From the NCBI RefSeq assembly GCF_001889605.1, contig NZ_CP018171.1, forward strand, positions 2,564,501 through 2,628,500: 64,000 nt of DNA. The letters run 5' to 3'. The number at the start of each line of letters is the position of its first letter. Position 1 is the stretch's first letter. This DNA is from Aquibium oceanicum. GTDB taxonomy: Bacteria; Pseudomonadota; Alphaproteobacteria; Rhizobiales; Rhizobiaceae. Under the pieces are notes generated by a model. The model was given only the letters and a program-made list of their open reading frames with translations. It was not told where the DNA came from and made no database searches. Both the position numbers and the translations under genes were made by a program. Shown here one piece after another: positions 48,138 through 63,358 of this stretch.

Positions 48138-51100
48138 ATGCTATCCGCAGTAGTATCGAAAATCCTGCGACGAGCGGTGGTTGCGTCATTGTTGACGACG
48201 ACGGCAATCGGCTACTCGTTCGCGGGCGACGGCGGACTTTCGAAGGCTGCAATGGAGAAGCTGGTCGCTTCAGACCAGATCCTCGCGAACATGGCAGATG
48301 GTAGCGCACCGGTAATCGTGGAATTCGCGATGCCCCAAGCCGCCGGTGCGGCAGCAGACGCGGCAGCGGCGGACGAGGCCCAGATATCCGCCGTGCACCA
48401 GAAGCAGGACGAGATTCTGAGCCGCGTTTTCGCGGCCGAAGGCGGGCTTTCCGGGGCCCTTGCGTCTGACGATCTCGGCATCAAGAGAATGGACTTCTCG
48501 CCGATGTTCGCGGCGACGGTAGACCAGGAGACGCTGGAGAAGCTGGCCGCCGACCCGGCAGTGGTGCGCATTCACGAGGACGGTCTCAACGAGCCGTATC
48601 TCATTCAATCGCTTCCGCTGATCGGCATGCCGACCGCCTATGCGGCAGGCGCTACCGGCAGCGGCTGGACGGTAGCGGTGCTCGACACGGGCTCGCGCCG
48701 GACGCACGAGTTTCTGAGTTCTAGTGTAATCTCGGCGGCGTGCTACAGTACCAGCAACGGTACCGCCACGAGCATCTGCCCGGGCGGCGTCAGCGCGTCT
48801 ACCGACATCAATTCGGCAATGGATTGCGACATCGCGACGATTTACGGCTGCGGCCACGGCACGCATACGGCCGGCACCGCGGCGGGGTTCAACACCAGCC
48901 TGAGTTCCGGCGAGCCGGCGAATGGCGTGGCGCGCAGTTCCAAGCTGATAACGATCAACGTGTTCTCGCGCTTCCCGCCTTCGCAGTGCAGCAATTCCCG
49001 CAGCAACGGCTGCGTGCTGGCCTACAACTCCGACATGATCAAGGGGTTCGAGCGGGTCTATGCCCTGCGCAACACCTACAAGATCGCCTCGGTCAACGTG
49101 AGCATCGGCGGCGGGTCGTATTCCTCGTACTGCGACAGCGATTCGCGCAAGCCGATCATCGATCTGCTGCGCAACGCGGGCATCGCCTCGGCGATTTCAG
49201 CGGGCAACAACAGCTACAACACCAACGTCGGCGCCCCCGGCTGTATCTCGAGCGCGATAACGGTCGCGTCCTCGACCAAGTCGGACGTGCGTTCCTCGTT
49301 CTCGAACTGGGGCTCCCTGATCGACGTGGTGGCTCCTGGTTCCTCGATCCTTGCGTCCTATGTAAGCGGATCGAGCAACAACTTTTATGACTATCTGAGT
49401 GGCACCTCAATGGCGGCCCCGCATGTCGCCGGCGCCTTCGCGGCGCTGCGGTCGGCCAAGCCGACTGCGACGGTGTCCCAGATCGAGGCCGCACTGAAGG
49501 CCACCGGCGTCAACATCTCCTCGGCGGGGACCACAAAGCCGCGCATCAGGGTCGACAGCGCTCTGACCTATCTGGGCGGCGGTGCCACGGCCAAAGCGGT
49601 GATGACCTCGCCGACGCCGGGTTCGACGCTCGGTTCCACGGCGACGTTCGTATGGAGCGCCGGCACCGGCGTGACGCAGTACTGGCTCTATGTCGGGTCC
49701 ACCGGCGCGGGCTCGTCGAACATCTACCAGGCCAGCCAGGGCACCAGCAAGACCAGGACCGTGTCGGGTCTGCCCTCCACGGGCACAATCTACGTGCGCC
49801 TGTGGTCGCTGATCAGCGGCACCTGGCAGTACAACGACTACACCTACAAGACAGGCGGCGGCGTGAAGGCCGTCATGACGTCCCCGACGCCGGGCTCGAC
49901 GCTTGGTTCCTCGGCGACGTTCGTGTGGAGCGCCGGCACCAATGTGACGCAGTACTGGCTCTACGTCGGCTCGACCGGCGCGGGCTCGACCAACATCTAC
50001 CAGGCTAGCCAGGGGACCAGCAAGACCAGGACCGTGACGGGTCTGCCGTCCACGGGCACGATCTACGTGCGCCTGTGGTCGCTGATTTCCGGCACCTGGC
50101 AGTACAACGACTACACCTACAAGACCGGTGGCGGCGTGAAGGCCGTCATGACGTCCCCGACGCCGGGCTCCACCCTCGGGTCGTCTGCGACGTTCGTGTG
50201 GAGCGCCGGCACCAATGTGACGCAGTACTGGCTCTACGTGGGCTCGACGGGTGCTGGTTCGACCAACATCTACCAGGCCAGCCAGGGGACCAGCAAAACT
50301 AGGACCGTGTCGGGGCTTCCCTCCACGGGCACGATCTACGTGCGCCTGTGGTCGCTGTTTAGTGGCACGGGCTGGCAGTACAACGACTACACCTACAAGG
50401 CTGGCGGCACCGCCAAGGCCGTCATGACGTCTCCGACGCCGGGCTCGACGCTCGGTTCTTCGGCGACGTTCGTGTGGACCGCCGGTACCGGCGTGACGCA
50501 GTACTGGCTCTACGTCGGCTCGACCGGCGCAGGCTCGTCGAACATCTACCAGGCCAGCCAAGGCACGAGTAAGTCGAAGACCGTGACGGGACTTCCCTCC
50601 ACGGGCACGATCTATGTGCGCCTGTGGTCGCTGTTTAGTGGCACGGGCTGGCAGTACAACGACTACACCTACAAAGCCGGCGGCACTTCGAAGGCCGTCA
50701 TGACGTCTCCGACGCCGGGCTCGACGCTCGGTTCTTCGGCGACGTTCGTGTGGACCGCCGGTACCGGCGTTTCGCAGTACTGGCTCTACGTCGGTTCGAC
50801 CGGCGCAGGTTCGACCAACATCTACCAGGCGAGCCAGGGGACCAACACGTCGAAGACGGTGACGGGGCTTCCCTCCACGGGCACGATCTATGTGCGCCTG
50901 TGGTCGCTGTTTAGTGGCACCGGCTGGCAGTACAATGACTACACCTACAAGGCCGGCGGCACCGCCAAGGCCGTCATGACGTCTCCGACGCCGGGCTCGA
51001 CGCTCGGTTCTTCGGCGACGTTCGTGTGGACCGACGGTACCGGCGTTTCGCAGTACTGGCTCTACGTCGGTTCGACCGGCGCAGGTTCGACCAACATCTA

Positions 51101-51590
51101 CCAGGCGAGCCAGGGGACCAACACGTCGAAGACGGTGACGGGGCTTCCCTCCACGGGCACGATCTACGTGCGCCTGTGGTCGCTGTTTAGTGGCACCGGC
51201 TGGCAGTACAACGACTACACCTATAAGGCCGGGGGCGGGACATCCACGAAATCCGTCCTTCTCTCCCCGGCGAATGGCAGCAAGCTTGCTTCTTCCACCA
51301 AGTTTACCTGGTCGTCGGTGAGCGGCGCGTCGCAATACTGGATCTACTTCGGGTCGACCGTCGGTGGTTCCAACTACTACAACGCCACTCAGGGCACCAA
51401 CACGACCAACACGTTCAACTTCAACGGGTTCAGCGGCCAGGCCATCTACATGCGGCTCTGGACTCTGTACAACGGGACGTGGGTGTACAATGACTACAAC
51501 TTCATCACGCCTGGCGGAACGACCGGTGCGGGGGGAGCCTCGGGCATACCCTCCGTCACGGGGGTGACGCAGCAAAGCGCTCTCGAGTAA
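48138..51590 (+). CDS. Secreted S8 (subtilisin-like) serine peptidase with seven tandem C-terminal repeats
   Basis: 1150 residues, ATG with GGGAGAATAAG upstream. Signal peptide (about 1-30), then an I9-like propeptide (about 45-155, VIVEFAMPQ...). The subtilase domain has Asp in VAVLDTG (about 185), His in GHGTHTAG (about 241) and Ser in LSGTSMAAPHVAGA (about 424). From residue about 486 there are seven domains of ~91-94 residues with the pattern SPTPGSTLGSSATFVW...QYWLYVGSTGAGS. Six are nearly identical and the seventh is divergent. They look like Ig/Fn3-type beta domains for adhesion or substrate binding. No membrane anchor or autotransporter barrel is seen, so release may use an unlinked secretion system. 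Confidence 0.9.
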   Translation: MLSAVVSKILRRAVVASLLTTTAIGYSFAGDGGLSKAAMEKLVASDQILANMADGSAPVIVEFAMPQAAGAAADAAAADEAQISAVHQKQDEILSRVFAAEGGLSGALASDDLGIKRMDFSPMFAATVDQETLEKLAADPAVVRIHEDGLNEPYLIQSLPLIGMPTAYAAGATGSGWTVAVLDTGSRRTHEFLSSSVISAACYSTSNGTATSICPGGVSASTDINSAMDCDIATIYGCGHGTHTAGTAAGFNTSLSSGEPANGVARSSKLITINVFSRFPPSQCSNSRSNGCVLAYNSDMIKGFERVYALRNTYKIASVNVSIGGGSYSSYCDSDSRKPIIDLLRNAGIASAISAGNNSYNTNVGAPGCISSAITVASSTKSDVRSSFSNWGSLIDVVAPGSSILASYVSGSSNNFYDYLSGTSMAAPHVAGAFAALRSAKPTATVSQIEAALKATGVNISSAGTTKPRIRVDSALTYLGGGATAKAVMTSPTPGSTLGSTATFVWSAGTGVTQYWLYVGSTGAGSSNIYQASQGTSKTRTVSGLPSTGTIYVRLWSLISGTWQYNDYTYKTGGGVKAVMTSPTPGSTLGSSATFVWSAGTNVTQYWLYVGSTGAGSTNIYQASQGTSKTRTVTGLPSTGTIYVRLWSLISGTWQYNDYTYKTGGGVKAVMTSPTPGSTLGSSATFVWSAGTNVTQYWLYVGSTGAGSTNIYQASQGTSKTRTVSGLPSTGTIYVRLWSLFSGTGWQYNDYTYKAGGTAKAVMTSPTPGSTLGSSATFVWTAGTGVTQYWLYVGSTGAGSSNIYQASQGTSKSKTVTGLPSTGTIYVRLWSLFSGTGWQYNDYTYKAGGTSKAVMTSPTPGSTLGSSATFVWTAGTGVSQYWLYVGSTGAGSTNIYQASQGTNTSKTVTGLPSTGTIYVRLWSLFSGTGWQYNDYTYKAGGTAKAVMTSPTPGSTLGSSATFVWTDGTGVSQYWLYVGSTGAGSTNIYQASQGTNTSKTVTGLPSTGTIYVRLWSLFSGTGWQYNDYTYKAGGGTSTKSVLLSPANGSKLASSTKFTWSSVSGASQYWIYFGSTVGGSNYYNATQGTNTTNTFNFNGFSGQAIYMRLWTLYNGTWVYNDYNFITPGGTTGAGGASGIPSVTGVTQQSALE
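49593..51530 (+). repeat. In-frame tandem DNA repeats (6 near-identical + 1 divergent)
   Basis: Units begin at 49593, 49866, 50139, 50415, 50691, 50967 and 51249 (lengths 273, 273, 276, 276, 276, 282 and about 280 bases). Units 1-6 are nearly identical in DNA, including silent positions such as GTGCGCCTGTGGTCGCTG. Units 3-6 share a one-codon insertion (SGTGW instead of SGTW). Unit 7 keeps the protein pattern but not the DNA. The similarity points to recent expansion or gene conversion. Confidence 0.92.
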
Positions 51591-54564: not shown

Positions 54565-54677
54565 CCGCAGCGCCCGGCTTGCCCGGGCGGCGGCGATATC
54601 CGTCGGCCTAATCTGGCGGGCGGCCCGGCCGAATTGGTCGATTGCCCGCCTTGCGTGCTTCGCCTATCACGCGTCGC

Positions 54678-55628
54678 ATGTCCCCGCAGCTCGAAGCCGC
54701 ATTCTTCATCTTTGGTCTGGTCGCGATCGGCTATCTGGCCGGTCTCACCGGCTTCATGCGCGCCGAGGCCGGTGAAGCCCTGGGCGAATTCGCCGTCGGC
54801 GTGGCGTTGCCGCTGCTTCTCTTTCGCACCATGCTGTCGGCGGATTTCCATGGAACCGCGCCGTGGGCGCTCTGGGCGAGCTACTTCTCTGCCGTGGCGC
54901 TCGCGTGGACCATCGGGCATCTAGTCACCACCCGCGTCCTTGGACGCGATGCGCGCACGGGCGTCGTCGGCGGCGTATCGTCGTCGTTCTCCAACACCGT
55001 CCTGCTCGGCCTGCCGCTTGTGTTGGGCGTCTACGGCCAGGCCGGATTCGAGGTGCTGGCGCTGATCGTGTCGGTGCACCTCGGCATCATGATGGCCGCG
55101 ACGATCATCATCTTCGCGATCCTGGAACGGGGCGGCGAGAAGGGGCTTCGGCCGGCGGCGCTGCTGAAGGATTTCGTGCGGAAGCTCGCGACGAACCCCC
55201 TGATCATCGGCATCGTGTGCGGTCTGTTGTGGCGGCTGATGGGCCTGCCGTTGCCGTCGCTCGCCGCGCGTTTCGTCGACGGGCTGGGCAGCATTGCGGG
55301 GCCGCTCGCACTGTTCTCCATGGGGCTGGGGCTGCGCCGCTATGGCATCTCGGGGAACCTTCGGGCGGGCTTCACGCTCGCGGCGCTGAAGCTTTTCGTC
55401 ATGCCGGCGATCGCGCTGGGCATGGTGCTGCTTTTCGGTCTGCCGCCTCTCGCGGCCTCGGTGGTCGTGCTGACGGCAGCCTTGCCCGCTGGCGTCAACT
55501 GCTATCTCATCGCGGTGCAGTTCGGAACCGGCCAGGCGCTGGCCTCGAACATGATCACGATCGCCACGGGGCTCGGCGTCGCCACCACAGCCTTCTGGAT
55601 TACCGTCCTCCATGCGATCTTCGGCTGA
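54678..55628 (+). CDS. AEC (auxin efflux carrier) family transporter
   Basis: 316 residues from the ATG at 54678; a TTG at 54642 is less likely. About ten helices are present with the two-fold AEC pattern: FVGVALPLLLFRTM-like segment, SSSFSNTVLLGLPLVLGVYG in the first half and ALFSMGLGLRRYGI, AALPAGVNCYLIAVQF in the second. Members export or import small organic anions, including malonate and auxin-like acids. It is convergent with the gntR gene of the sulfolactate region, so transport of sulfolactate or a related anion is possible but unproven. Confidence 0.85.
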   Translation: MSPQLEAAFFIFGLVAIGYLAGLTGFMRAEAGEALGEFAVGVALPLLLFRTMLSADFHGTAPWALWASYFSAVALAWTIGHLVTTRVLGRDARTGVVGGVSSSFSNTVLLGLPLVLGVYGQAGFEVLALIVSVHLGIMMAATIIIFAILERGGEKGLRPAALLKDFVRKLATNPLIIGIVCGLLWRLMGLPLPSLAARFVDGLGSIAGPLALFSMGLGLRRYGISGNLRAGFTLAALKLFVMPAIALGMVLLFGLPPLAASVVVLTAALPAGVNCYLIAVQFGTGQALASNMITIATGLGVATTAFWITVLHAIFG

Positions 55629-55686: not shown

Positions 55687-56421
55687 TCAGCCGAGTTCCG
55701 AGCGGTAGTGGAGCGCGCCGGTGAGGCAGCGGGAGACGCGCAGTTCCACCGGCTTGCCTTCGAGATCGAGTGCCATACGGGTGATCTCGAGAAGCGGCGT
55801 GCCGATGTCGCAGCGCAGGTGCGGCGCTTCCGCCCCGGTGGCCGCGACCGCCTTCAGCTTCTCGCTCGCGCGCGCGATGGTGATGCCCCAGCGTTCCGAA
55901 TAGAGGCCGTAGACATTGTTCGGGATCTCCGCGAGATCGCCGAGGCCCGGAAAGCGCGCCGCCGGCAGCCAGATCGTCTCCACCAGCGACGGCGTCTCGG
56001 CGAGTGTACGGACGCGGTCGATCCGCCAGATCTCGTCGCCCTCGGCGATCCCCAACGCAGCGGCTTCGAGGCTGCCGCTTGCTTCCGACCGGCTGGCAAG
56101 AATGCGCGAACTCGGAAAGGTGACGTCGCCGCCATCGGGGACGAGCCTGAAGAACTGGAACAGGATACGGCTTTCCTCGGGTCTCGCGACGAAGGTGCCG
56201 CGGCCCTGCTGCCGGATCAGCAGGTTCTCGGCCGTCATGGCGTCCAGCGCTTTGCGGATCGTGCCCTGGCTCACCCCGACCTCGCGCGCCAGCTCCATTT
56301 CGGAGGGGATCACCTGGCCCGGTTGCCACAGGCCTTCGATCAGGCGGCGCACCAACTGGTCCCTGACCTGCACGTAGAGGGGTTTGTAGGGAAATGGCGC
56401 GACGGCGCCGCTCTGGTCCAT
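55687..56421 (-). CDS. GntR-family (HutC/UTRA) transcriptional regulator, likely controller of suyAB
   Basis: 244 residues from the ATG at 56421 with GGAAGACGAGC upstream. The N-terminal winged helix (about 10-75) contains IPSEMELAREVGVSQGTIRKALDAMTAENLL and RQQGRGTFVA, typical of GntR. The C-terminal UTRA effector domain includes SLVETIWLPAARFPGL and ITRMALDLEGKPVELRVSRC. It is divergent from suyA with a palindromic operator in between, so it probably represses suyAB until a sulfonate ligand binds. The ligand is unknown. Confidence 0.88.
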   Translation of the reverse strand: MDQSGAVAPFPYKPLYVQVRDQLVRRLIEGLWQPGQVIPSEMELAREVGVSQGTIRKALDAMTAENLLIRQQGRGTFVARPEESRILFQFFRLVPDGGDVTFPSSRILASRSEASGSLEAAALGIAEGDEIWRIDRVRTLAETPSLVETIWLPAARFPGLGDLAEIPNNVYGLYSERWGITIARASEKLKAVAATGAEAPHLRCDIGTPLLEITRMALDLEGKPVELRVSRCLTGALHYRSELG

Positions 56422-56494
56422 GCTCGTCTTCCGGTCTCGCAACGGCTTCTTGTTAGCGCGTCGCGATTGACTCCGCCATCATTTCGTATCTTAT

Positions 56495-56508
56495 GTCTTA
56501 TATAAGAC
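56495..56508. promoter_or_regulatory. GntR-type operator upstream of suyA
   Basis: GTCTTATATAAGAC is a perfect 14-base palindrome. It fits the GT-Nx-TA-Ny-AC rule for GntR/HutC operators. It lies 22 bases before the suyA start and is the only clear palindrome between gntR and suyA. TCTTAT also flanks it on the left (56488-56493, imperfect) and CTTAT on the right, hinting at overlapping half-sites. Confidence 0.75.
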
Positions 56509-56530: not shown

Positions 56531-56818
56531 ATGAGCATTCCCCACCTCCTCGTCCACGAGCACAAGGACAATGTCGGCGTGGTCGTCGTGGAAGGCCTGA
56601 AGGCGGGCACGACCATGCTGGCGGTGGTAACGGCGGACAACTCCTCGTTCGAGGTGGAAGCGAAGGCCGACATCCCGATCGGCCACAAGGTAGCGCTGAA
56701 GGAACTCGCCAGCGGCGATACGGCCATCAAGTATGGCGAGGACATCGGCCGCTTCGTCGCCGATGTGGCGCGCGGCGAGCACGTTCACGTCCACAATCTC
56801 AAAACGAAGCGCTGGTGA
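56531..56818 (+). CDS. suyA: (2R)-sulfolactate sulfo-lyase subunit alpha
   Basis: 95 residues, one SAF-type domain of the UxaA/altronate-dehydratase N-terminal family. The C terminus ERVHVH-like [37 protein letters not shown] and the 95-residue length agree with SuyA as I remember it from Paracoccus. With SuyB it cleaves (R)-3-sulfolactate to pyruvate and sulfite in the cytoplasm. Altronate or galactarate dehydratase small subunit is the alternative, but the SuyB partner and the two following dehydrogenases favour SuyA. First gene of the operon, behind a GntR operator. Confidence 0.85.
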
Positions 56819-56885
56819 TGCTCCTGGCGGCGCGCGGCGGCACCCGCGCGCGCCGGAGTGGTTCGACACAAGGGAAGGGCGGCCG

Positions 56886-58067
56886 ATGGCGTCGAGATAT
56901 TCCAACATGACGGTTAGAGCATACCGGCGCGAAAACGGCCGCGTCGGCGTGCGCAACCACGTGGTGATCCTGCCGGTGGACGACATCTCCAATGCTGCCT
57001 GCGAGGCGGTCGCCAACAACATCAAGGGTACGATCGCGCTGCCCCACGCCTACGGCCGGCTGCAGTTCGGCGAGGACCTCGACCTCTTCTTCCGCACGAT
57101 GATCGGCACCGGGGCTAACCCCAACGTGGCGGCGGTCGTCGTCATCGGCATCGAGCCGGGCTGGACCAAGCGGATCGTCGACGGCATCGCGGCGACCGGA
57201 AAGCCTGTGGCAGGCTTCTCGATCGAGCAGAACGGCGACCTGAAGACGATAATGGACGCCAGCCGCAAGGCTAAGGACTTTGTGCACTACGCCACCGAGC
57301 TTCAGCGCGAGGAATGCTCTATCTCGGAGCTCTGGGTCTCGACCAAGTGCGGCGAGAGCGACACCACCACCGGTCTCGGCTCCTGCCCGACCGTCGGCAA
57401 CATGTACGACAAGCTCCTGCCGGAAGGCATTTACGGCTGCTTCGGCGAGACCTCGGAGATCACCGGCGCCGAACACATCGCCAAGGCGCGCGCCATCAAT
57501 CCGGAAGTCGGGGAGCGCTGGTACGCCATGTGGAAGGCTTACCAGGAGGACGTGATCGAGGCGCACAAGACCGACGACCTGTCGGAGAGCCAGCCGACCA
57601 AGGGCAACATCGAAGGCGGCCTGACCACCATCGAGGAAAAGGCGCTGGGCAACCTGGAGAAGATCGGCCGGACGTCGAGATACATCGACATCCTCGAGCC
57701 AGCCGAAGCGCCGAAATCGGGCGAGGGGCTCTACTTCATGGATTCCTCGTCCGCCGCGGCCGAGTGCGTGACGCTGATGGCAGCGGGCGGCTACGTCATC
57801 CACACCTTCCCGACCGGACAGGGCAACGTGATCGGCAATCCGATCGTGCCGGTGATCAAGATCACGGCCAACCCGCGCACCGTGCGAACGATGGGCGAGC
57901 ATGTCGATGTCGACGTGTCGGGCATTCTGCGCCGCGAGATGACGATCGACGAGGCCGGCGATGCGCTGATCGACATGATCGTACGGACCGCCAACGGCCG
58001 CAACACAGCCGCCGAGGCGCTGGGGCACCGCGAGTTCGTGATGACGAAGCTCTATCGGAGCGCGTGA
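56886..58067 (+). CDS. suyB: (2R)-sulfolactate sulfo-lyase subunit beta
   Basis: 393 residues from the ATG at 56886, with AAGGGAAGGG upstream. UxaA-family large subunit: [24 protein letters not shown] at the N terminus, [41 protein letters not shown] (cluster or metal-binding region with Cys) and [23 protein letters not shown], ending in [12 protein letters not shown]. These blocks match SuyB rather than altronate dehydratase proper. It forms the iron-dependent lyase with SuyA. The MntA-HepT pair follows on the opposite strand, interrupting the path to slcC. Confidence 0.87.
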
Positions 58068-58070
58068 GGA

Positions 58071-58424
58071 TCAGTCGCGTTCGATGCCGGCGTTAGCGAG
58101 CAATTGGAGAATCGTGTGTCGGAGCGCGGGCAATTCGAGTTCGTAGATCTTCCAGAGGACGTCGTTGCGAATCTCGTAGTAGCCGTGTCTGATGCGGTTG
58201 CCGATCCCGGCGATCTCGCCCCATTCTATGAGCGGAAACGCCTGCTTGTAGGCATCGGGCACGTTTCGCGACGCTTCGCTGATGACCATCACGAAATGGC
58301 TTACAGCGGCCTGCCGCATCCGGTCGTTCTCGAACGTGGATCTGCTGATCCCCGACAGGGTAGAATTGATGTCATCGATGGCCTCGACGATGTCCTGAAG
58401 CCAGTCGGTGTCGAGGCGCTTCAT
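58071..58424 (-). CDS. hepT: HepT-like HEPN toxin (DUF86)
   Basis: 117 residues, all-helical DUF86/HEPN protein: VEAIDDINSTLSGISRSTFENDRMRQAAVSHFVMVISEA. The C-terminal motif is EIAGIGNRIRHGYYEIRND. It is the toxin half of a MntA-HepT module, in which the nucleotidyltransferase antitoxin AMPylates the HEPN protein near its YxY-type tail. The usual RX4-6H arginine position reads Gly in this sequence (IGNRIRH). It overlaps mntA by one base. Its stop lies 3 bases from the suyB stop, convergent. Confidence 0.85.
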   Translation of the reverse strand: MKRLDTDWLQDIVEAIDDINSTLSGISRSTFENDRMRQAAVSHFVMVISEASRNVPDAYKQAFPLIEWGEIAGIGNRIRHGYYEIRNDVLWKIYELELPALRHTILQLLANAGIERD

Positions 58425-58723
58425 CAGAAGACCTGCAAAAGGTCGTCGGCAATCCTCTCCCTGAAGCGGGGTTTCATGGCCTCCGAGACCTCGGTCACCT
58501 GCGTCTGGATCCCGAGTTCCTCGCTGAGGTCCGGCCCGATCCCGAAGAAATCGAAGCTCGAGACGTGCGGCGGCGGATCGTATTCGATCAGGAGATCGAG
58601 ATCGCTGTCCGGCCGCTCATCTCCTCGTGCACGCGAGCCGAATATCTGCAGGCGCGTGATGCCGCGCGCGCGCAGCTGCGGCTCCATCTCCTTCAGCCTG
58701 GCTATGATTTCCTCGCGTGTCAT
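58424..58723 (-). CDS. mntA: MntA-like minimal nucleotidyltransferase (antitoxin)
   Basis: 99 residues. The nucleotidyltransferase motif LQIFGSRARGDERPDSDLDLLIEYD contains GSxxxG and the DxD metal ligands, followed by the helix DLSEELGIQTQVTEV. MNT proteins paired with HepT add AMP to the toxin and neutralise it. First gene of the two-gene antisense module, with translational coupling to hepT. Its promoter must be in the 58724-58858 gap, back to back with that of slcC. Confidence 0.88.
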   Translation of the reverse strand: MTREEIIARLKEMEPQLRARGITRLQIFGSRARGDERPDSDLDLLIEYDPPPHVSSFDFFGIGPDLSEELGIQTQVTEVSEAMKPRFRERIADDLLQVF

Positions 58724-58858
58724 GACCGGCGCCGTGTCCTACGGTTCGACGGTTCGAATATAGTGCAAAAAGCGGATCGCGGGGAGGCGGGTGCCAGGCG
58801 CTCTGTTGCGCCGCATGCTGGCACGAGGAACGGCTGATATCCGGAGGGGAAGGCAAGG

Positions 58859-59788
58859 ATGCCCGACATCGTCATCACCGAGTTCATGGACGAAGCCGCG
58901 GTCGAGCGGCTGAAGGAGCGGCACGAGACGCTCTACGATCCGGGCCTGGTCGACCGGCCGGAGGACCTTGCGCGTGCGGTCGCGAATGCGCGGGCGGTGA
59001 TCGTGCGCAACCGCACGCAGGTCCGTGGCGCACTGCTCGACGTGGCGCACAAACTCTCCTGTGTCGGACGGCTGGGCGTCGGGCTCGACAACATCGACGT
59101 TGACGCCTGCAAGGCACGTGGCATCGCGGTCTACCCGGCGACCGGTGCCAACGACCTGTCGGTTGCCGAATACGTGGTCTCGGCCGCCATGACCCTGCTG
59201 CGCGGCGCCTATTCGGCGAGCGCCGACGTCGCGGCCGGCAAGTGGCCGCGGCAGACCCTTATCGGGCGCGAGCTGGCCGGCAAGACCATGGGGCTCGTCG
59301 GGCTGGGATCGATCGCGCGCGAGGTGGCGTGGCGGGCGCAGGCCTTCGGCATGCAGGTCGCCGCCTACGATCCCATGCTGCTCGCCAGCGATCCGGCCTG
59401 GCAACTGGCGCGCAACGTCTCGCTGGATGGACTTCTGGCGATATCCGACGTGGTCAGCCTGCACGTGCCGCTGACGGAGGCGACGCGCCGGATGATCGGA
59501 GCCGAACAGATCGCTGCCATGAAGCCGGGCGCGATCCTCATCAACGCCGCACGCGGCGGCGTGGTGGATGAGGAGGCATTGGCGGCGGCTCTGCGGGCTA
59601 ACAGGATCGGCGGCGCGGCGCTCGACGTCTTCGAGACGGAGCCGCTGACGGCCGAGGCGGGCGCGAAGTTCTCGGGTCTGGACAATCTCATCCTTACGCC
59701 GCACATCGCGGGCGTCACGGTCGAGTCCAACCTTCGCGTCTCGGACCTGATCGCGCGGACCGTGCTGGCGCATCTGGAGAAGGCCTGA
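58859..59788 (+). CDS. slcC: D-2-hydroxyacid dehydrogenase, probable (S)-sulfolactate dehydrogenase
   Basis: 309 residues, ATG with GGAGGGGAAGGCAAGG upstream. Rossmann motif GLVGLGSIAREVAW. Catalytic Arg is in NAARGGVVDEEAL, Glu in DVFETEPL and His in TPHIAGVT, the set of D-isomer-specific 2-hydroxyacid dehydrogenases. In Chromohalobacter and Roseovarius, SlcC of this family oxidises (S)-sulfolactate to sulfopyruvate with NAD+, and its position next to a ComC-like gene and suyAB supports that assignment. Phosphoglycerate-dehydrogenase-like activity on another acid is the alternative. comC begins immediately after its stop. Confidence 0.78.
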   Translation: MPDIVITEFMDEAAVERLKERHETLYDPGLVDRPEDLARAVANARAVIVRNRTQVRGALLDVAHKLSCVGRLGVGLDNIDVDACKARGIAVYPATGANDLSVAEYVVSAAMTLLRGAYSASADVAAGKWPRQTLIGRELAGKTMGLVGLGSIAREVAWRAQAFGMQVAAYDPMLLASDPAWQLARNVSLDGLLAISDVVSLHVPLTEATRRMIGAEQIAAMKPGAILINAARGGVVDEEALAAALRANRIGGAALDVFETEPLTAEAGAKFSGLDNLILTPHIAGVTVESNLRVSDLIARTVLAHLEKA

Positions 59789-60793
59789 ATGTCGGAAAGA
59801 CTGCTGAGTGTCGCCGAGGCGCATGCGCTGGTCGTGGCCGCCCTGATGGCATCGCGGACCTCGCCGGACAACGCGGCGCAAGTCGCGGATGCGCTTATCG
59901 GCGCGGAACTGGCGGGGCAGGGCGGTCACGGCCTGCGCCGCGTGCCGGCCTACGCCGCGCAGGCCAGAGCCGGCAAGGTCGACGGCTTCGCCACGCCGAG
60001 CGCAAAGCGTACCCGGCCGGGCGCCGTGCATGTCGATGCAGCACTCGGGTTCGCCTATCCCGCGCTCGGCCTGGCCGCGCGGGAACTGCTCGCGATCACG
60101 CCGGAGCAGGGCATCGCGACCGCGGGCATTTATCGCTCGCATCATGCCGGCGTCGCCGGGCTTGCGGTCGAAGCTCTGGCCGAGCAAGGCCTCGTGGCCT
60201 TGATGTTTGCCAACGCGCCGGCCTCGATCGCGCCCTGGGGCGGGCGGCGTCCGCTCTACGGAACCGACCCGATCGCCTTTGCCTGCCCGACGGAGGGCGG
60301 CTTGCCGGTGGTGGTCGACGTGTCGATGTCCAAGGTGGCGCGCGGCAAGATCATGGCGGCAAACCAGAAGAAGGAGCCGATCCCCGAGGGCTGGGCGCTG
60401 GATGTCGACGGCAACCCCACCACGGATGCCAAGGCGGCCCTTGCCGGAACCATGGTGCCTCTCGGCGATGCGAAAGGCACGGCGCTAGCCCTCATGGTCG
60501 AGCTCTTATGCGCCGGTCTGACCGGCGCCAACTATGCCTACGAACAATCCTCCTTCTTCGACGCCGAGGGTGCGCCGCCGGCCACCGGACAACTCCTGAT
60601 CGCGATCGACCCTCAGGCCTTCGGCACCGGGTCTCTGTCACGCTTCGCGGAGATGGCGGGGCTCGTCGCGGGCATGGATGGCGCGCGGTTGCCAGGGTCG
60701 AGGAGGCAGGCTATTCGTGAACGCCTTCGGCGCGACGGCATCCCTGCCGACGCCGCGCTCGTCATTGAAATCGAACAGATAGCCGCCGGTTGA
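59789..60793 (+). CDS. comC: Ldh/MDH type-2 family dehydrogenase, probable (R)-sulfolactate dehydrogenase
   Basis: 334 residues, starting directly after the slcC stop. Member of the malate/L-lactate dehydrogenase-2 family, with GHGLRRVPAYA, the catalytic-loop segment AGIYRSHHAGVAGLAVE, NAPASIAPWGGRRPLYGTDPIAFACP, MSKVARGKI and ALALMVELLCAGLTG. ComC of this family reduces sulfopyruvate to (R)-sulfolactate with NADPH or NADH. SlcC followed by ComC converts (S)- to (R)-sulfolactate, the only isomer cleaved by SuyAB. Ureidoglycolate or delta1-piperideine-2-carboxylate reductases are other members, but context favours ComC. Confidence 0.78.
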   Translation: MSERLLSVAEAHALVVAALMASRTSPDNAAQVADALIGAELAGQGGHGLRRVPAYAAQARAGKVDGFATPSAKRTRPGAVHVDAALGFAYPALGLAARELLAITPEQGIATAGIYRSHHAGVAGLAVEALAEQGLVALMFANAPASIAPWGGRRPLYGTDPIAFACPTEGGLPVVVDVSMSKVARGKIMAANQKKEPIPEGWALDVDGNPTTDAKAALAGTMVPLGDAKGTALALMVELLCAGLTGANYAYEQSSFFDAEGAPPATGQLLIAIDPQAFGTGSLSRFAEMAGLVAGMDGARLPGSRRQAIRERLRRDGIPADAALVIEIEQIAAG

Positions 60794-60816
60794 AGGCGGG
60801 CCAAGGAGGCGTCCCG

Positions 60817-62274
60817 ATGTTGCAGAAAACCAGCCACTACATGCGCCAGGCGAACCTTATCGGCGGCGAATGGGTGCAAGCGGATTCGGGCGCCACCATC
60901 GACGTCACCAACCCGGCCAACGGCCTCAAGATCGGCACAGTGCCGAAATCCGGCAAGGCCGAGACCAAGCGCGCCATCGAAGCCGCGGCCGAAGCCTTCA
61001 AGACCTTCCGCAAGACCTCGGCGCTCGATCGGTCCAAGATGCTGCGCCGGCTGCACGACGCCATCATGGACAACCAGGACGCGCTGGGCGAACTCCTGAC
61101 CATGGAACAGGGCAAGTCGCTGACCGAGGCCAAGGGCGAGGTCGGCGCTTCTGCCGCCTACATCATGTGGTTCGCGGAGGAAGCGCGCCGCACCTATGGC
61201 GACGTCGTGCCGTCGCCCTGGGCCGACCGTCGAATCCTGGTGACGCGCGAGCCGGTGGGCGTGATCGCCGCCATCACGCCGTGGAACTTCCCATCCTCCA
61301 TGCTAGCCCGCAAGATCGGCCCGGCCATCGCCGCCGGCTGCACGACGGTGGTCAAGCCCGCCTCGCAGACTCCGTACTCCGGTCTTGCCTGGGGACTTCT
61401 GTGCGAGGAAGCCGGCATTCCGGCCGGCGTGGTCAACATCGTCACCGGCTCCGCCGCCGAGATCGGCGACGAGATCTGCGCCAATCCGCTGGTCAAGAAG
61501 ATCACCTTCACCGGCTCGACCGAGGTCGGCAAGATTCTGATCGAGAAGTCGGCCGCGACCGTCAAGAAGGTGTCCATGGAACTCGGCGGCAACGCGCCGT
61601 TCCTGGTCTTCGACGACGCCGACATCGACCGCGCGGTCGAAGGCGCGATGGTCGCCAAGTATCGCAATTCCGGCCAGACGTGCGTTTGCACCAACCGCTT
61701 CTTCGTGCAGGCGGGCATTCACGACAGGTTCGTGGAGAAGCTGGCCGAGGCTTCGGACAAGCTCAAGGTCGGATCGGGACTGGACCAGGGCGTGCAGCAG
61801 GGCCCGCTGATCGACGACAAGGCGGTCGAGAAGGTCGAGGAACTGATCGGCGACGCAACCGCCAAGGGCGGCAAGGTCGTCACCGGTGGCAAGCGCCACG
61901 ACCTCGGCGGCTCCTTCTTCCAGCCGACCGTGATTTCCGGCGCCACGCCCGACATGCGCTTCATGAAGGAAGAGATTTTTGGGCCCGTCGCCCCGGTCTT
62001 CAAGTTCGAGACCGAGGAAGAGGCCGTAGCGCTGGCCAACGACACCGAATACGGCCTTGCCTGCTATTTCTACACCTCTGACCTCGGCCGCGCCTTCCGG
62101 GTCATGGAAGGTCTGAAATACGGCATGGTCGGCGTCAATGAGGGACTGATCACCACGCCCGAGGCGCCCTTCGGCGGGGTCAAGGAGAGCGGTCTCGGCC
62201 GCGAGGGCGGGCACCAGGGCATCGAGGACTACCTCGACACAAAGTACGTCTGCATCGGCGGCCTCGGCCTCTAG
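60817..62274 (+). CDS. GabD-like aldehyde dehydrogenase, candidate sulfolactaldehyde dehydrogenase
   Basis: 485 residues from the ATG at 60817 with AAGGAGGCGTCCCG upstream. The ALDH active site is complete: N157 in TPWNFP, E255 in MELGGN, C289 in SGQTCVC, and the cofactor segment FTGSTEVGK. The sequence is in the succinate-semialdehyde dehydrogenase (GabD) branch, to which SlaB of the sulfo-Entner-Doudoroff pathway also belongs. Given suyAB, slcC and comC upstream on the same strand, oxidation of 3-sulfolactaldehyde to sulfolactate is a reasonable guess. Succinate semialdehyde remains the default. 23 bases follow the comC stop. Confidence 0.85.
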   Translation: MLQKTSHYMRQANLIGGEWVQADSGATIDVTNPANGLKIGTVPKSGKAETKRAIEAAAEAFKTFRKTSALDRSKMLRRLHDAIMDNQDALGELLTMEQGKSLTEAKGEVGASAAYIMWFAEEARRTYGDVVPSPWADRRILVTREPVGVIAAITPWNFPSSMLARKIGPAIAAGCTTVVKPASQTPYSGLAWGLLCEEAGIPAGVVNIVTGSAAEIGDEICANPLVKKITFTGSTEVGKILIEKSAATVKKVSMELGGNAPFLVFDDADIDRAVEGAMVAKYRNSGQTCVCTNRFFVQAGIHDRFVEKLAEASDKLKVGSGLDQGVQQGPLIDDKAVEKVEELIGDATAKGGKVVTGGKRHDLGGSFFQPTVISGATPDMRFMKEEIFGPVAPVFKFETEEEAVALANDTEYGLACYFYTSDLGRAFRVMEGLKYGMVGVNEGLITTPEAPFGGVKESGLGREGGHQGIEDYLDTKYVCIGGLGL

Positions 62275-62338: not shown

Positions 62339-63358
62339 ATGGCGGATGCCGAGGAATTCGGGACGACGGCGGAAGGCGAAGCGGTCCATCGCCTCGAGAT
62401 CAAGGGCGGCGGCCTGACGGCGCGCATCCTCACCTGGGGCGCCGTCGTGCAGGACCTGCGGCTGGCCGAGCACGACGCGCCACTGGTGCTCGGCTTCGAG
62501 AGCTTCGAGGACTATCCCGCCTATTCGTCTTACTTCGGTGCGATCGCCGGCCGCTACGCCAATCGCATCTCGGGCGGCCGCTTCACCATCGAGGGGCAGC
62601 GCTTCCAGACCGATACCAACTTTCTCGGCAAGCACACGCTGCACGGCGGATCCAAGAGCACGGGCAAGCGTGTCTGGAGGCTGGACAATCGCGGCTCCGA
62701 CTTCGTTACCATGGCTTTGCGCGATCCCGATGGCTTCATGGGGTTTCCCGGAACGCTCGACATCCAGTGCACCTACCGCCTGAAACTGCCCGGCACGCTG
62801 TCGGTCGAACTCAGCGCGATCACTGACCAGGCGACGCTCTGCAATCTCGCCCACCATTCCTATTTCAACTTGAACGACGGCGGGATGAACGACGTCCTGG
62901 GTCACCGCATGATGATCCCCGCGCAGGCGTACCTGCCGGTGGACGGCGAACTGATCCCGACCGGCGTCGTGCAACCGGTCGAGGGAACGGCGTTCGACTT
63001 CCTGATGCCGCGGCCGATCGGTCTGCCCTTCGGCGGCAAGCACGTCGACTACGACCACAATTTCTGCCTATCGGCGTCGCGTGGCCCGCTCAAGCAGATG
63101 GCCTGGGCGCAAGGCACCAATTCGGGCGTGGAGATGGAAGTCTGGTCGACAGAGCCGGGCCTTCAGTTTTATGACGGCCACAAGGTGGCGCGCGAGAAGC
63201 CCGGCCTCGGAGGCCGCATCTACAAGGCCAATGCCGGCTTTGCCGTGGAGCCGCAGATCTGGCCGGATTCGCCGAACCGGTCCTATTTCCCGCAGGCGCT
63301 GCTGTGGCCGGGCGACCGCTACCGGCAGGTGACGGAGTATCGATTCAGACTGCCGTGA
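62339..63358 (+). CDS. galM: Aldose 1-epimerase (GalM) family protein
   Basis: 339 residues, ATG with GGGAGCGCC upstream. Galactose-mutarotase fold with AGRYANRISGGRFTIEG, the catalytic His in THTLHGG-like KHTLHGGSKS and in LAHHSYFNLN, and the catalytic Glu in FAVEPQIWPDSPN. It interconverts alpha and beta anomers of hexoses. A relative, SquM, does this for sulfoquinovose, which would fit the upstream sulfolactate genes. It lies 64 bases after the aldehyde dehydrogenase gene on the same strand and overlaps the 3' end of the convergent kinase gene by 14 bases. Confidence 0.88.
   Translation: MADAEEFGTTAEGEAVHRLEIKGGGLTARILTWGAVVQDLRLAEHDAPLVLGFESFEDYPAYSSYFGAIAGRYANRISGGRFTIEGQRFQTDTNFLGKHTLHGGSKSTGKRVWRLDNRGSDFVTMALRDPDGFMGFPGTLDIQCTYRLKLPGTLSVELSAITDQATLCNLAHHSYFNLNDGGMNDVLGHRMMIPAQAYLPVDGELIPTGVVQPVEGTAFDFLMPRPIGLPFGGKHVDYDHNFCLSASRGPLKQMAWAQGTNSGVEMEVWSTEPGLQFYDGHKVAREKPGLGGRIYKANAGFAVEPQIWPDSPNRSYFPQALLWPGDRYRQVTEYRFRLP

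What the first reader, a model, noticed from the sequence alone, without database searches (positions are those of the whole stretch)
56531..62274. Sulfolactate degradation cluster with dual-dehydrogenase racemisation and a possible sulfolactaldehyde entry step
suyA and suyB are followed by slcC and comC, the pair known from Chromohalobacter to convert (S)- to (R)-sulfolactate. A GabD-like aldehyde dehydrogenase follows directly and could make sulfolactate from sulfolactaldehyde, the product of sulfo-Entner-Doudoroff cleavage of sulfoquinovose. If so, one organism could take sulfoquinovose carbon fully to pyruvate and sulfite, rather than excreting sulfolactate. Sequence shows the genes; the substrate link is inference.
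Basis: partly seen in the sequence, partly recalled or inferred. Interest (0 to 1): 0.7.

Follow-up and report, generated by a model that had tools for sequence, protein, structure and literature searches.

The report
Sulfolactate-cleaving operon with sulfosugar genes elsewhere
A bacterium related to rhizobia carries genes that should split sulfolactate into pyruvate and sulfite, and elsewhere in its chromosome, apparently under the same switch, genes for making that sulfolactate from the plant sulfosugar sulfoquinovose, so one cell may be able to use the whole sugar.

Summary
In detail: suyA, suyB, slcC, comC and a GabD-like ALDH lie at 56531-62274. SuyB is a sulfolactate sulfo-lyase by clade (100/100) and by loss of three of the four iron cysteines of UxaA/GarD dehydratases.

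Two matches to the suy palindrome precede that kinase. In Nitratireductor arenosus and Aquibium A9E412 both sets form one island; in Maritalea porphyrae epimerase and ALDH close the sulfo-EMP operon.

Weak points: no LacD-type SFP aldolase here; such ALDHs are common without suyAB and absent from 10 of 18 genomes with the isomerase; their pocket residues equal those of E. coli GabD; exporters and importers were not searched genome-wide; nothing was assayed. Similar gene sets are in print (Actinobacteria in silico; sulfofucose in Paracoccus). New variant of a known kind.

The parts
54642..55628 (+). AEC-family permease (PF03547 Mem_trans), start codon uncertain; candidate transporter of the cluster
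   Evidence: Pfam 179 bits; beside GntR in L080, L085, L086, L088, L095 and L140, 6 of 80 named loci; also beside the ALDH in genomes without suyAB
55687..56442 (-). GntR/UTRA regulator, divergent from suyA
   Evidence: Pfam GntR + UTRA; homologues at the same place in many relatives
56495..56508 (.). perfect palindrome GTCTTATATAAGAC, proposed operator of the GntR regulator
   Evidence: only site with 2 or fewer mismatches in the 64 kb window; 29.7 bits with a matrix from relatives; a site with 2 or fewer mismatches lies in the 1 kb before suyB in 60 of 126 loci, against 12 elsewhere in 2.27 Mb of the same loci
56531..56818 (+). suyA, (R)-sulfolactate sulfo-lyase small subunit (SAF domain)
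   Evidence: Pfam; 72% to P. versutus, 75% to S. mexicanum
56886..58067 (+). suyB, (R)-sulfolactate sulfo-lyase large subunit
   Evidence: 80% to P. versutus, 68% to Cupriavidus pinatubonensis, 61% to Rhodococcus koreensis; 38% or less to the ten other UxaA-family proteins compared; Suy clade 100/100; three of four iron Cys columns lost
58071..58424 (-). HepT-like HEPN protein, between suyB and slcC on the other strand; role in the pathway not claimed
   Evidence: PF01934 65 bits; same place in 5 other genomes
58424..58723 (-). MntA-like minimal nucleotidyltransferase, partner of HepT
   Evidence: PF01909; motif GSRARGDERPDSDLD; PADLOC PDC-S09
58859..59788 (+). slcC, D-2-hydroxyacid dehydrogenase family, candidate (S)-sulfolactate dehydrogenase
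   Evidence: Pfam; 64% to the P. aestuarii suy-cluster protein; an SlcC homologue in 29 of 80 named SuyB loci
59789..60793 (+). comC, Ldh_2 family, candidate (R)-sulfolactate dehydrogenase
   Evidence: Pfam Ldh_2; best NCBIfam model sulfolac_dhydr 176.5 bits, below its cut-off of 500; 62% to P. aestuarii; a ComC homologue in 58 of 80 named SuyB loci
60817..62274 (+). GabD-like aldehyde dehydrogenase, candidate sulfolactaldehyde dehydrogenase
   Evidence: TIGR01780 SSADH above cut-off; directly after comC; linkage and tree
62339..63358 (+). aldose 1-epimerase, candidate sulfoquinovose mutarotase
   Evidence: PF01263; homologues inside sulfo-EMP operons L170 and L171
63345..64000 (-). KdgK-like PfkB kinase, runs past the window end (L001 8345-9286); probably chromosomal backbone, not part of the pathway
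   Evidence: NF052444 below cut-off; followed by FixH-like, cytochrome c peroxidase, Lrp and PutA genes also in L256 and L257, whose genomes have no SuyB

Best explanation
This is the lower half of a sulfosugar pathway under one switch. The upper half sits at C1:3545500-3550195 of the same chromosome: sulfoquinovosides are opened by a GH188 sulfoquinovosidase, the sugar is equilibrated by the window's aldose epimerase, isomerised to sulfofructose by a SftI/fucose-isomerase-type enzyme and phosphorylated by a YihV-type kinase. Sulfofructose-1-phosphate is then cleaved to DHAP and (S)-sulfolactaldehyde by an aldolase not yet identified here. In the window, the ALDH oxidises sulfolactaldehyde to (S)-sulfolactate, SlcC and ComC invert it via sulfopyruvate to (R)-sulfolactate, and SuyAB cleaves it to pyruvate and sulfite. 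The divergent GntR protein represses both loci through the GTCTTATATAAGAC operator until a sulfonated intermediate appears. Shown by sequence: gene families, open frames, order, palindrome sites. Inferred: every substrate, the regulator-operator link, direction of flux, and the aldolase step.
For: SuyB clade and cysteine signature. Own-genome GH188 at 71% to the L104 copy, best PDB match 8QC2, three near-equal top matches of 398-401 bits and 75 for the next, with the sulfonate-binding R, L (+4) and K (+6) conserved; isomerase 68% to L104, whose only NCBIfam match is SftI sulfoquinovose isomerase, 258 bits, below its cut-off of 700; kinase with YihV 7AG6 as best PDB match, 219 against 164 bits. 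Palindrome: a matrix from 30 relatives' suyA sites finds in 106,060 bases of this genome exactly three sites at 17.3 bits or more, one before suyA and two before the kinase; next best 7.3; 0 in 20 shuffles. A site precedes the kinase in 11 of 13 other sulfo-EMP loci. One contiguous island in L095 and L104. In L171 the order is SFK-SFPA-isomerase-GH188-epimerase-ALDH. Isomerase (50% identity or more) and SuyB co-occur in 16 of 18 genomes against 54 of the other 279, Fisher p 2e-9, uncorrected for kinship. Kinase, isomerase and GH188 are open and have 13, 29 and 17 changes here against 24, 28 and 22 in Aquibium ELW1220.
Against: No LacD-type SFP aldolase in this genome by protein search; its two PF01791 proteins read as a DhnA-type and a DeoC-type aldolase (NCBIfam for the first). 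G299 (L088) lacks it too, while 7 of the 11 genomes and 7 of the 12 have it. The ALDH is not specific: 66 of 297 genomes have one at E<=1e-190, 20 of them with SuyB (p 0.10); only 8 of the 18 isomerase genomes have one; L081, L082 and L083 have suyAB-slcC-comC-epimerase without it, and G217, with both halves, has only a 55% ALDH. Eight genomes keep an ALDH of 84-86% beside the permease with no suyAB there, seven of them with no SuyB in the genome. Pocket residues do not discriminate. The isomerase is below the SftI cut-off. The relatives' sites for the matrix were picked by likeness to the window's palindrome. No sulfite exporter or oxidase was seen near, and none was searched for genome-wide.
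Confidence: 0.62

Rival explanations
1. A scavenger cluster for sulfolactate made by others. SlcC, ComC and SuyAB mineralise imported sulfolactate; the ALDH and epimerase are neighbours by history, the ALDH being an ordinary succinate-semialdehyde dehydrogenase, and the sulfo-EMP genes without their aldolase are not a working pathway.
For: Paracoccus versutus has suyAB with no listed ALDH or sulfo-EMP gene in the 25 kb shown, and Paracoccus aestuarii and Methylobacterium have transporters beside suyAB; permease-ALDH-epimerase-KdgK exists without suyAB; the window ALDH is the only GabD-type one in its genome, next best 49%; 10 of 18 isomerase genomes lack such an ALDH; LacD aldolase not found.
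Against: No importer is seen in this cluster unless the AEC permease is one; palindrome copies before the kinase; kinase, isomerase and GH188 open and not changing faster; ALDH and epimerase end a sulfo-EMP operon in L171.
Confidence: 0.25
2. A dihydroxypropanesulfonate (DHPS) pathway: DHPS is oxidised to sulfolactaldehyde, then by the ALDH to sulfolactate and on to SuyAB.
For: A Rhodococcus plasmid has suyAB, an ALDH, an MFS transporter, an NAD(P)-dependent oxidoreductase, a hydroxyacid dehydrogenase and an Ldh gene in one row; 38 of 80 named SuyB loci carry an hpsN homologue.
Against: No hpsN or hpsO homologue in the six named loci that carry the window-type block; the window's own neighbours were read, not searched, for these. 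The Rhodococcus ALDH is only 44% identical to the window's.
Confidence: 0.07
3. A sulfofucose pathway as in Paracoccus wurundjeri, with the window providing the lower half.
For: Sinorhizobium mexicanum carries MR/MLE dehydratase, HpcH aldolase, lactonase, SDR, an 85% identical ALDH and suyAB-slcC-comC in one region.
Against: Best match to that dehydratase in the window's genome is 39%, against 61% in G040 and 46-49% in three others of the 60 genomes searched.
Confidence: 0.03
4. The UxaA-like pair is a sugar-acid dehydratase, not a sulfo-lyase.
For: Same superfamily; a split pair is described as an L-fuconate dehydratase from gene context (PMC6336799, passages and section 8); a Variovorax pair with 38% SuyB identity also sits with hydroxyacid dehydrogenase and Ldh genes.
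Against: Suy clade 100/100 apart from UxaA and GarD; three of four iron cysteines absent, as PMC6336799 states for SuyAB; close relatives beside sulfite oxidase and sulfite or sulfate exporter genes.
Confidence: 0.02

Closest known systems
Tandem sulfofucolytic-sulfolactate sulfolyase pathway of Paracoccus wurundjeri (PMC12421959, passages read)
   Same: SlcC, ComC and SuyAB as lower half fed by a sulfosugar in one cell, sulfite as product
   Different: Upper half there is an Entner-Doudoroff route for sulfofucose and the sulfolactaldehyde dehydrogenase was not identified; here the upper half is of sulfo-EMP type, with a GabD-like ALDH in the suy operon
GH188 'Y160' clusters of Actinobacteria such as IMCC26103 (PMC11465081, part 1 of 2 of its text read)
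   Same: Nearly the same list of genes in silico: GH188, fucose isomerase, SF kinase, SFP aldolase, SLA dehydrogenase, D-3-PGDH, SuyAB
   Different: There one cluster with an SFP aldolase and a Tyr at the altered sulfonate-site residue; here two separate loci, no LacD-type aldolase, Leu at that residue, ComC and a GntR palindrome
Extended sulfo-TAL clusters with SuyAB in Thermotogae and Chloroflexi (PMC9594981, passages read)
   Same: SuyAB coupled to sulfoglycolysis in one genome
   Different: Transaldolase route; kinase-type route here
Sulfolactate degradation with SlcC/ComC racemisation in Chromohalobacter salexigens (Denger and Cook 2010; seen only as cited in PMC12421959 and PMC9594981)
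   Same: Two dehydrogenases proposed to convert (S)- to (R)-sulfolactate before SuyAB
   Different: The C. salexigens proteins were not fetched, so no identity is given
Sulfolactaldehyde dehydrogenase RlGabD of Rhizobium leguminosarum (PMC10599462, passages read; PDB 8C54)
   Same: Same SSADH-type family, same proposed substrate residues
   Different: RlGabD falls in another branch of the ALDH tree than the window ALDH

Membership tests
(R)-sulfolactate sulfo-lyase SuyAB | Two subunits: SAF protein and GD_AH second plus C domains | tested here: met
   Pfam
(R)-sulfolactate sulfo-lyase SuyAB | SuyB groups with SuyB-type proteins, apart from UxaA/GarD | tested here: met
   100/100 branch, 18 rows; identity gap 74-95% versus 36% or less among the matches listed
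(R)-sulfolactate sulfo-lyase SuyAB | Loss of the conserved iron-binding cysteines of the superfamily | tested here: met
   three of four columns lost, fourth kept; rule from PMC6336799
(R)-sulfolactate sulfo-lyase SuyAB | Cleaves (R)-sulfolactate to pyruvate and sulfite | not testable with these tools
   needs enzyme assay
SlcC/ComC sulfolactate racemising pair | 2-Hacid_dh and Ldh_2 proteins in the suyAB cluster | tested here: met
SlcC/ComC sulfolactate racemising pair | Orthology to the characterised C. salexigens proteins | not tested
   C. salexigens sequences not fetched; P. aestuarii cluster proteins 64% and 62%
Sulfolactaldehyde dehydrogenase (GabD/SlaB) | Residues proposed for sulfonate binding (RlGabD Arg171, Arg289, Trp-Asn-Phe 162-164) | tested here: inconclusive
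   all present, but E. coli GabD has them too
Sulfolactaldehyde dehydrogenase (GabD/SlaB) | Sulfonate-specific subfamily | tested here: not met
   46 of 66 genomes with the ALDH lack SuyB; NCBIfam SSADH above cut-off
Sulfo-EMP pathway | Sulfoquinovose isomerase | tested here: inconclusive
   SftI-like, 258 bits, cut-off 700; 68% to a clustered homologue; no PDB match
Sulfo-EMP pathway | Sulfofructose kinase | tested here: met
   YihV 7AG6 best PDB match; operon and palindrome context; activity not tested
Sulfo-EMP pathway | LacD/YihT-type SFP aldolase | tested here: not met
   0 matches in this genome; of other aldolase families only PF01791 was searched
Sulfo-ED pathway | Sulfoquinovose dehydrogenase, lactonase, sulfogluconate dehydratase, KDSG aldolase | not tested
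   no reference proteins were searched in this genome
Sulfofucolytic ED pathway | SfcF-type MR/MLE dehydratase | tested here: not met
   best 39% in this genome, 61% in G040
GH188 sulfoquinovosidase | Similarity to 8QC2 and sulfonate-site Arg, Leu, Lys | tested here: met
   E 3.5e-119; residues aligned

The most novel reading that the evidence does not exclude
This lineage has replaced the LacD-type SFP aldolase of a sulfo-EMP route by an unrelated aldolase, keeps the whole sulfoquinovoside-to-pyruvate-plus-sulfite pathway as a two-locus regulon under one GntR operator, and uses an AEC-family permease (54642-55628) in place of the YeiH or TauE exporters for sulfite or a C3-sulfonate. That would be a sulfo-EMP variant and a sulfonate-linked transporter class of which I met no description in the papers I opened; no search was made for AEC sulfite transport.
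Probability: 0.25. Interest if true: 0.68.

Novelty: new variant of a known kind. Interest (0 to 1): 0.55.

Why it matters
[quoted passage not shown] PMC13372026, passages). If this reading is right, some Hyphomicrobiales close that loop inside one cell, under one operator. The 2026 review lists sulfo-EMP for Gammaproteobacteria and Actinobacteria (PMC12890257, passage), so the set would extend it, though the GH188 paper also names alphaproteobacterial sulfoquinovose clusters whose route I could not read from its legend (PMC10755693, passages). The window ALDH, and its 85% homologue in the Sinorhizobium mexicanum sulfofucose region, are testable candidates for the sulfolactaldehyde dehydrogenase that the Paracoccus wurundjeri study did not find.

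Tried and rejected
Altronate/galactarate dehydratase reading: rejected by tree and cysteines. Sulfofucose reading: dehydratase best 39%. The KdgK-like kinase as sulfofructose kinase: rejected, it belongs to a backbone row (KdgK, FixH-like, cytochrome c peroxidase, Lrp, PutA) that L256 and L257 keep without suyAB, and a YihV-like kinase exists elsewhere. Pocket residues as a test of ALDH substrate: not discriminating. ALDH-SuyB co-occurrence: no significant association (p 0.10), only physical linkage (7 of 20 within 15 kb, counted by hand; draft contigs count as unlinked). The genome lists were copied by hand. Rows dropped before the ALDH tree: 9 duplicates of the same gene and 10 own-genome paralogues of 41% identity or less. 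A first wording that the palindrome stands before suyA in most relatives was dropped after a recount: 60 of 126 loci. Structure prediction and fold search were not used.

Full report
What is there. The window is C1:2564501-2628500 of a 5.32 Mb genome in 2 contigs. Its genus was not determined; the nearest named SuyB relatives are an uncultured Mesorhizobium fragment (98% over 352 residues) and loci of Aliihoeflea, Aquibium, Chelativorans, Nitratireductor and unnamed Rhizobiaceae. On the + strand lie suyA (56531-56818), suyB (56886-58067), slcC (58859-59788), comC (59789-60793), a GabD-like ALDH (60817-62274) and an aldose epimerase (62339-63358). A GntR/UTRA regulator (55687-56442) is divergent from suyA, and an AEC permease precedes it (54642-55628). 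Between suyB and slcC, on the other strand, are a HepT-like and an MntA-like gene.

SuyAB. In 297 genomes of the order, SuyB relatives fall into two sets: 74-95% identity in 70 genomes, this one and partial matches at contig ends included (count from the list), and 36% or less for the other matches listed. Against plasmids, 13 of 314 matching records are at 60% or more and 301 below. A tree of 18 proteins puts the window SuyB with seven SuyB-type plasmid proteins at 100/100, apart from E. coli UxaA and GarD; UxaA, GarD and one haloarchaeal row are long branches, and the tool warns about their exact place. Of four cysteine columns, present in 8 of the 10 outgroup rows, the Suy rows keep one, as PMC6336799 says of SuyAB (section 8). 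The Variovorax protein (38%) shares that loss and has similar dehydrogenase genes beside it, so the gene order alone would not have been proof. Annotated neighbours of close SuyB relatives include sulfite oxidase and a putative sulfate exporter (P. versutus), a TauE/SafE exporter and a molybdopterin oxidoreductase (Methylobacterium) and hpsN/hpsO (Cupriavidus).

The upper half elsewhere in the genome. Upstream of the suy block in Nitratireductor arenosus (L095), Aquibium A9E412 (L104) and a Rhizobiaceae MAG (L081) lie a PfkB kinase, a LacD-type aldolase, a fucose-isomerase-like protein and a Gfo/Idh protein; the Aliihoeflea locus L082 reads the same way in part. Of 12 genomes searched, 8 including this one have the isomerase (68% here), and 5 including this one have the Gfo/Idh protein at 60% or more (71% here). 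Both lie at C1:3545503-3547975, and a kinase lies close by. The Gfo/Idh protein has 8QC2, the GH188 structure named in PMC11465081, as best PDB match and the Arg, Leu (+4), Lys (+6) of the sulfonate site described there. The kinase is closest to sulfofructose kinase YihV. The isomerase matches only SftI sulfoquinovose isomerase in NCBIfam, below cut-off, and nothing in the PDB by sequence. The LacD-type aldolase was not found here or in G299 (the genome of L088), while 7 of the 11 genomes have it at 60% or more (G305 has only a weak match; G306, with the sulfofucose set, none) and 7 of the 12. In this genome the kinase gene ends 5 bases from a histidine phosphatase gene; in L095 the aldolase gene lies between them. 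Other aldolases are known for this step: a Vibrio sulfo-EMP cluster has an SqiA homologue instead of YihT (PMC13372026, passage).

One switch. A perfect palindrome, GTCTTATATAAGAC, lies between GntR and suyA and is the only site with 2 or fewer mismatches in the window. In 126 other SuyB loci such a site lies in the 1 kb before suyB in 60 (33 of 80 named, 27 of 46 plasmid and G-handle loci), against 12 sites elsewhere in 2.27 Mb of the same loci, some of which are the kinase and sulfofucose sites below; many of the loci without it carry hpsN. A matrix from 30 of these sites, this genome left out (but the sites were picked by likeness to the window's palindrome), finds three sites at 17.3 bits or more in 106,060 bases of this genome: the suyA site (29.7) and two tandem copies (17.3 each) 41 and 67 bases before the kinase start; next best 7.3; none in 20 local shuffles. 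About 2% of the genome was scanned, so other sites may exist. A site also stands before the kinase in 11 of 13 other sulfo-EMP loci (not in L170, L171) and before sulfofucose genes in S. mexicanum (L034 17007). One paper search on sulfolactate, GntR, operator and suyA gave two papers, seen in the listing only.

The ALDH. For: it follows comC directly; it lies within 15 kb of suyB in 7 of the 20 genomes that have both, in five families, where about 0.13 would be expected (binomial p 4e-11, taking 4.5 Mb genomes); in L171 epimerase and ALDH end the sulfo-EMP operon (this is Maritalea porphyrae if, as contig length and position agree, it is the contig of L107); in S. mexicanum an 85% homologue lies in the sulfofucose region. 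Against: 46 of 66 genomes with such an ALDH lack SuyB, association p 0.10; 10 of 18 isomerase genomes lack such an ALDH (8 of 18 against 58 of 279, p 0.03); L081, L082 and L083 have the epimerase but not the ALDH after comC, though the genome of L081 has an 86% copy elsewhere; G217 has both halves and only a 55% ALDH; the key residues equal those of E. coli GabD; it is the genome's only GabD-type ALDH, so it may also be the ordinary succinate-semialdehyde dehydrogenase. In the tree (62 rows; 34 of 59 inner branches starred, 14 open) the eight rows without suyAB beside them that keep permease-ALDH lie in a supported set of 18 (98/94) with nine sulfonate-context rows and a Mesorhizobium huakuii plasmid copy in another context; a separate supported set of six is all suy- or slcC/comC-linked; the fork that joins these to several other lineages is open. 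L256 and L257, from genomes without SuyB, keep histidine phosphatase-permease-ALDH-epimerase-KdgK-FixH-peroxidase-Lrp-PutA, the L095 order minus the sulfosugar and suy genes, which I read as loss of the pathway around a retained core; insertion is not excluded.

Epimerase. A homologue (57%) starts the sulfo-EMP row of L170 and one (50%) lies in that of L171. Aldose epimerases of this kind in sulfoglycolytic operons include a proven sulfoquinovose mutarotase (PMC5902678, abstract).

Co-occurrence and constraint. The isomerase at 50% identity or more is in 18 of 297 genomes and 16 of those have SuyB, against 54 of the other 279 (Fisher 2e-9); with the six more distant isomerases it is 16 of 24 (3e-6). 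Kinship is not corrected for. With L095 as outgroup, kinase, isomerase and GH188 have 13, 29 and 17 amino-acid changes here against 24, 28 and 22 in Aquibium ELW1220, so absence of the aldolase has not visibly relaxed them; GntR (18/10), permease (24/14) and ALDH (21/14) have more changes here.

Compared with print. Sulfosugar plus SuyAB in one cell has been reported for sulfofucose in Paracoccus (PMC12421959, passages) and inferred for sulfo-TAL in Thermotogae and Chloroflexi (PMC9594981, passages). A gene list much like this one was described in silico in Actinobacteria (PMC11465081, part 1 of 2). The 2026 review places sulfo-EMP in Gammaproteobacteria and Actinobacteria (PMC12890257, passage). 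A search for sulfoquinovose isomerase, fucose isomerase, sulfolactate and Alphaproteobacteria (3 of 4 terms) found nothing. A search for sulfoquinovose, mineralization and Nitratireductor (2 of 3) gave 54 papers, of which the 15 listed include none with both sulfoquinovose and Nitratireductor. The Roseobacter paper of 2023 is not held, so it was not checked. What seems new is the taxon, the split layout with a shared palindrome, the missing aldolase, and a candidate for the sulfolactaldehyde step.

Verdict. Because the SFP aldolase test was not met, I do not file the genome as a member of canonical sulfo-EMP, only as working like it.

Noticed in passing
window 58071-58723 (-); L085 7601-8250; L088 11189-11878; L103 2467-3128; L086 3050-3697; L081 11189-11889: HepT/MntA pair at the same place between suyB and slcC in six genomes, diverging much faster (35-82%) than suyB; absent from the same place in L080, L082, L083, L095 and L104. 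A toxin-antitoxin-like module held inside a catabolic operon.
   Followed up: partly
L256, L257 (G136, G248): Genomes without SuyB keep histidine phosphatase-permease-ALDH-epimerase-KdgK in the order of the L095 island, which looks like a scar of a lost sulfosugar pathway.
   Followed up: partly
L222, L223, L224 (G028, G107, G138): slcC-comC-ALDH in a row in genomes that are not among the 198 of 297 with any SuyB match; what this trio does without SuyAB is unexplained.
   Followed up: no
L245 2523-7286 (Variovorax sp. PBL-E5 plasmid): A divergent split UxaA pair (38% to SuyB, same cysteine losses) with GntR, hydroxyacid dehydrogenase and Ldh genes: possibly a lyase for another substrate.
   Followed up: no
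L244 8687-16172 (Rhodococcus koreensis plasmid): suyA-suyB-ALDH-MFS-oxidoreductase-hydroxyacid dehydrogenase-Ldh in one row, looking like a complete DHPS or sulfolactaldehyde route in an actinobacterium.
   Followed up: no
L216 1450-2292 (G000:C1:1588637-1589335): DhnA-type class I aldolase next to an FGGY-like kinase (read); a possible but untested substitute for the missing SFP aldolase. No palindrome in the 3.7 kb seen.
   Followed up: partly
window 48138-51590: Long subtilase-like protein (by reading) with six near-identical repeats about 92 residues apart and a seventh diverged one (motif count).
   Followed up: no
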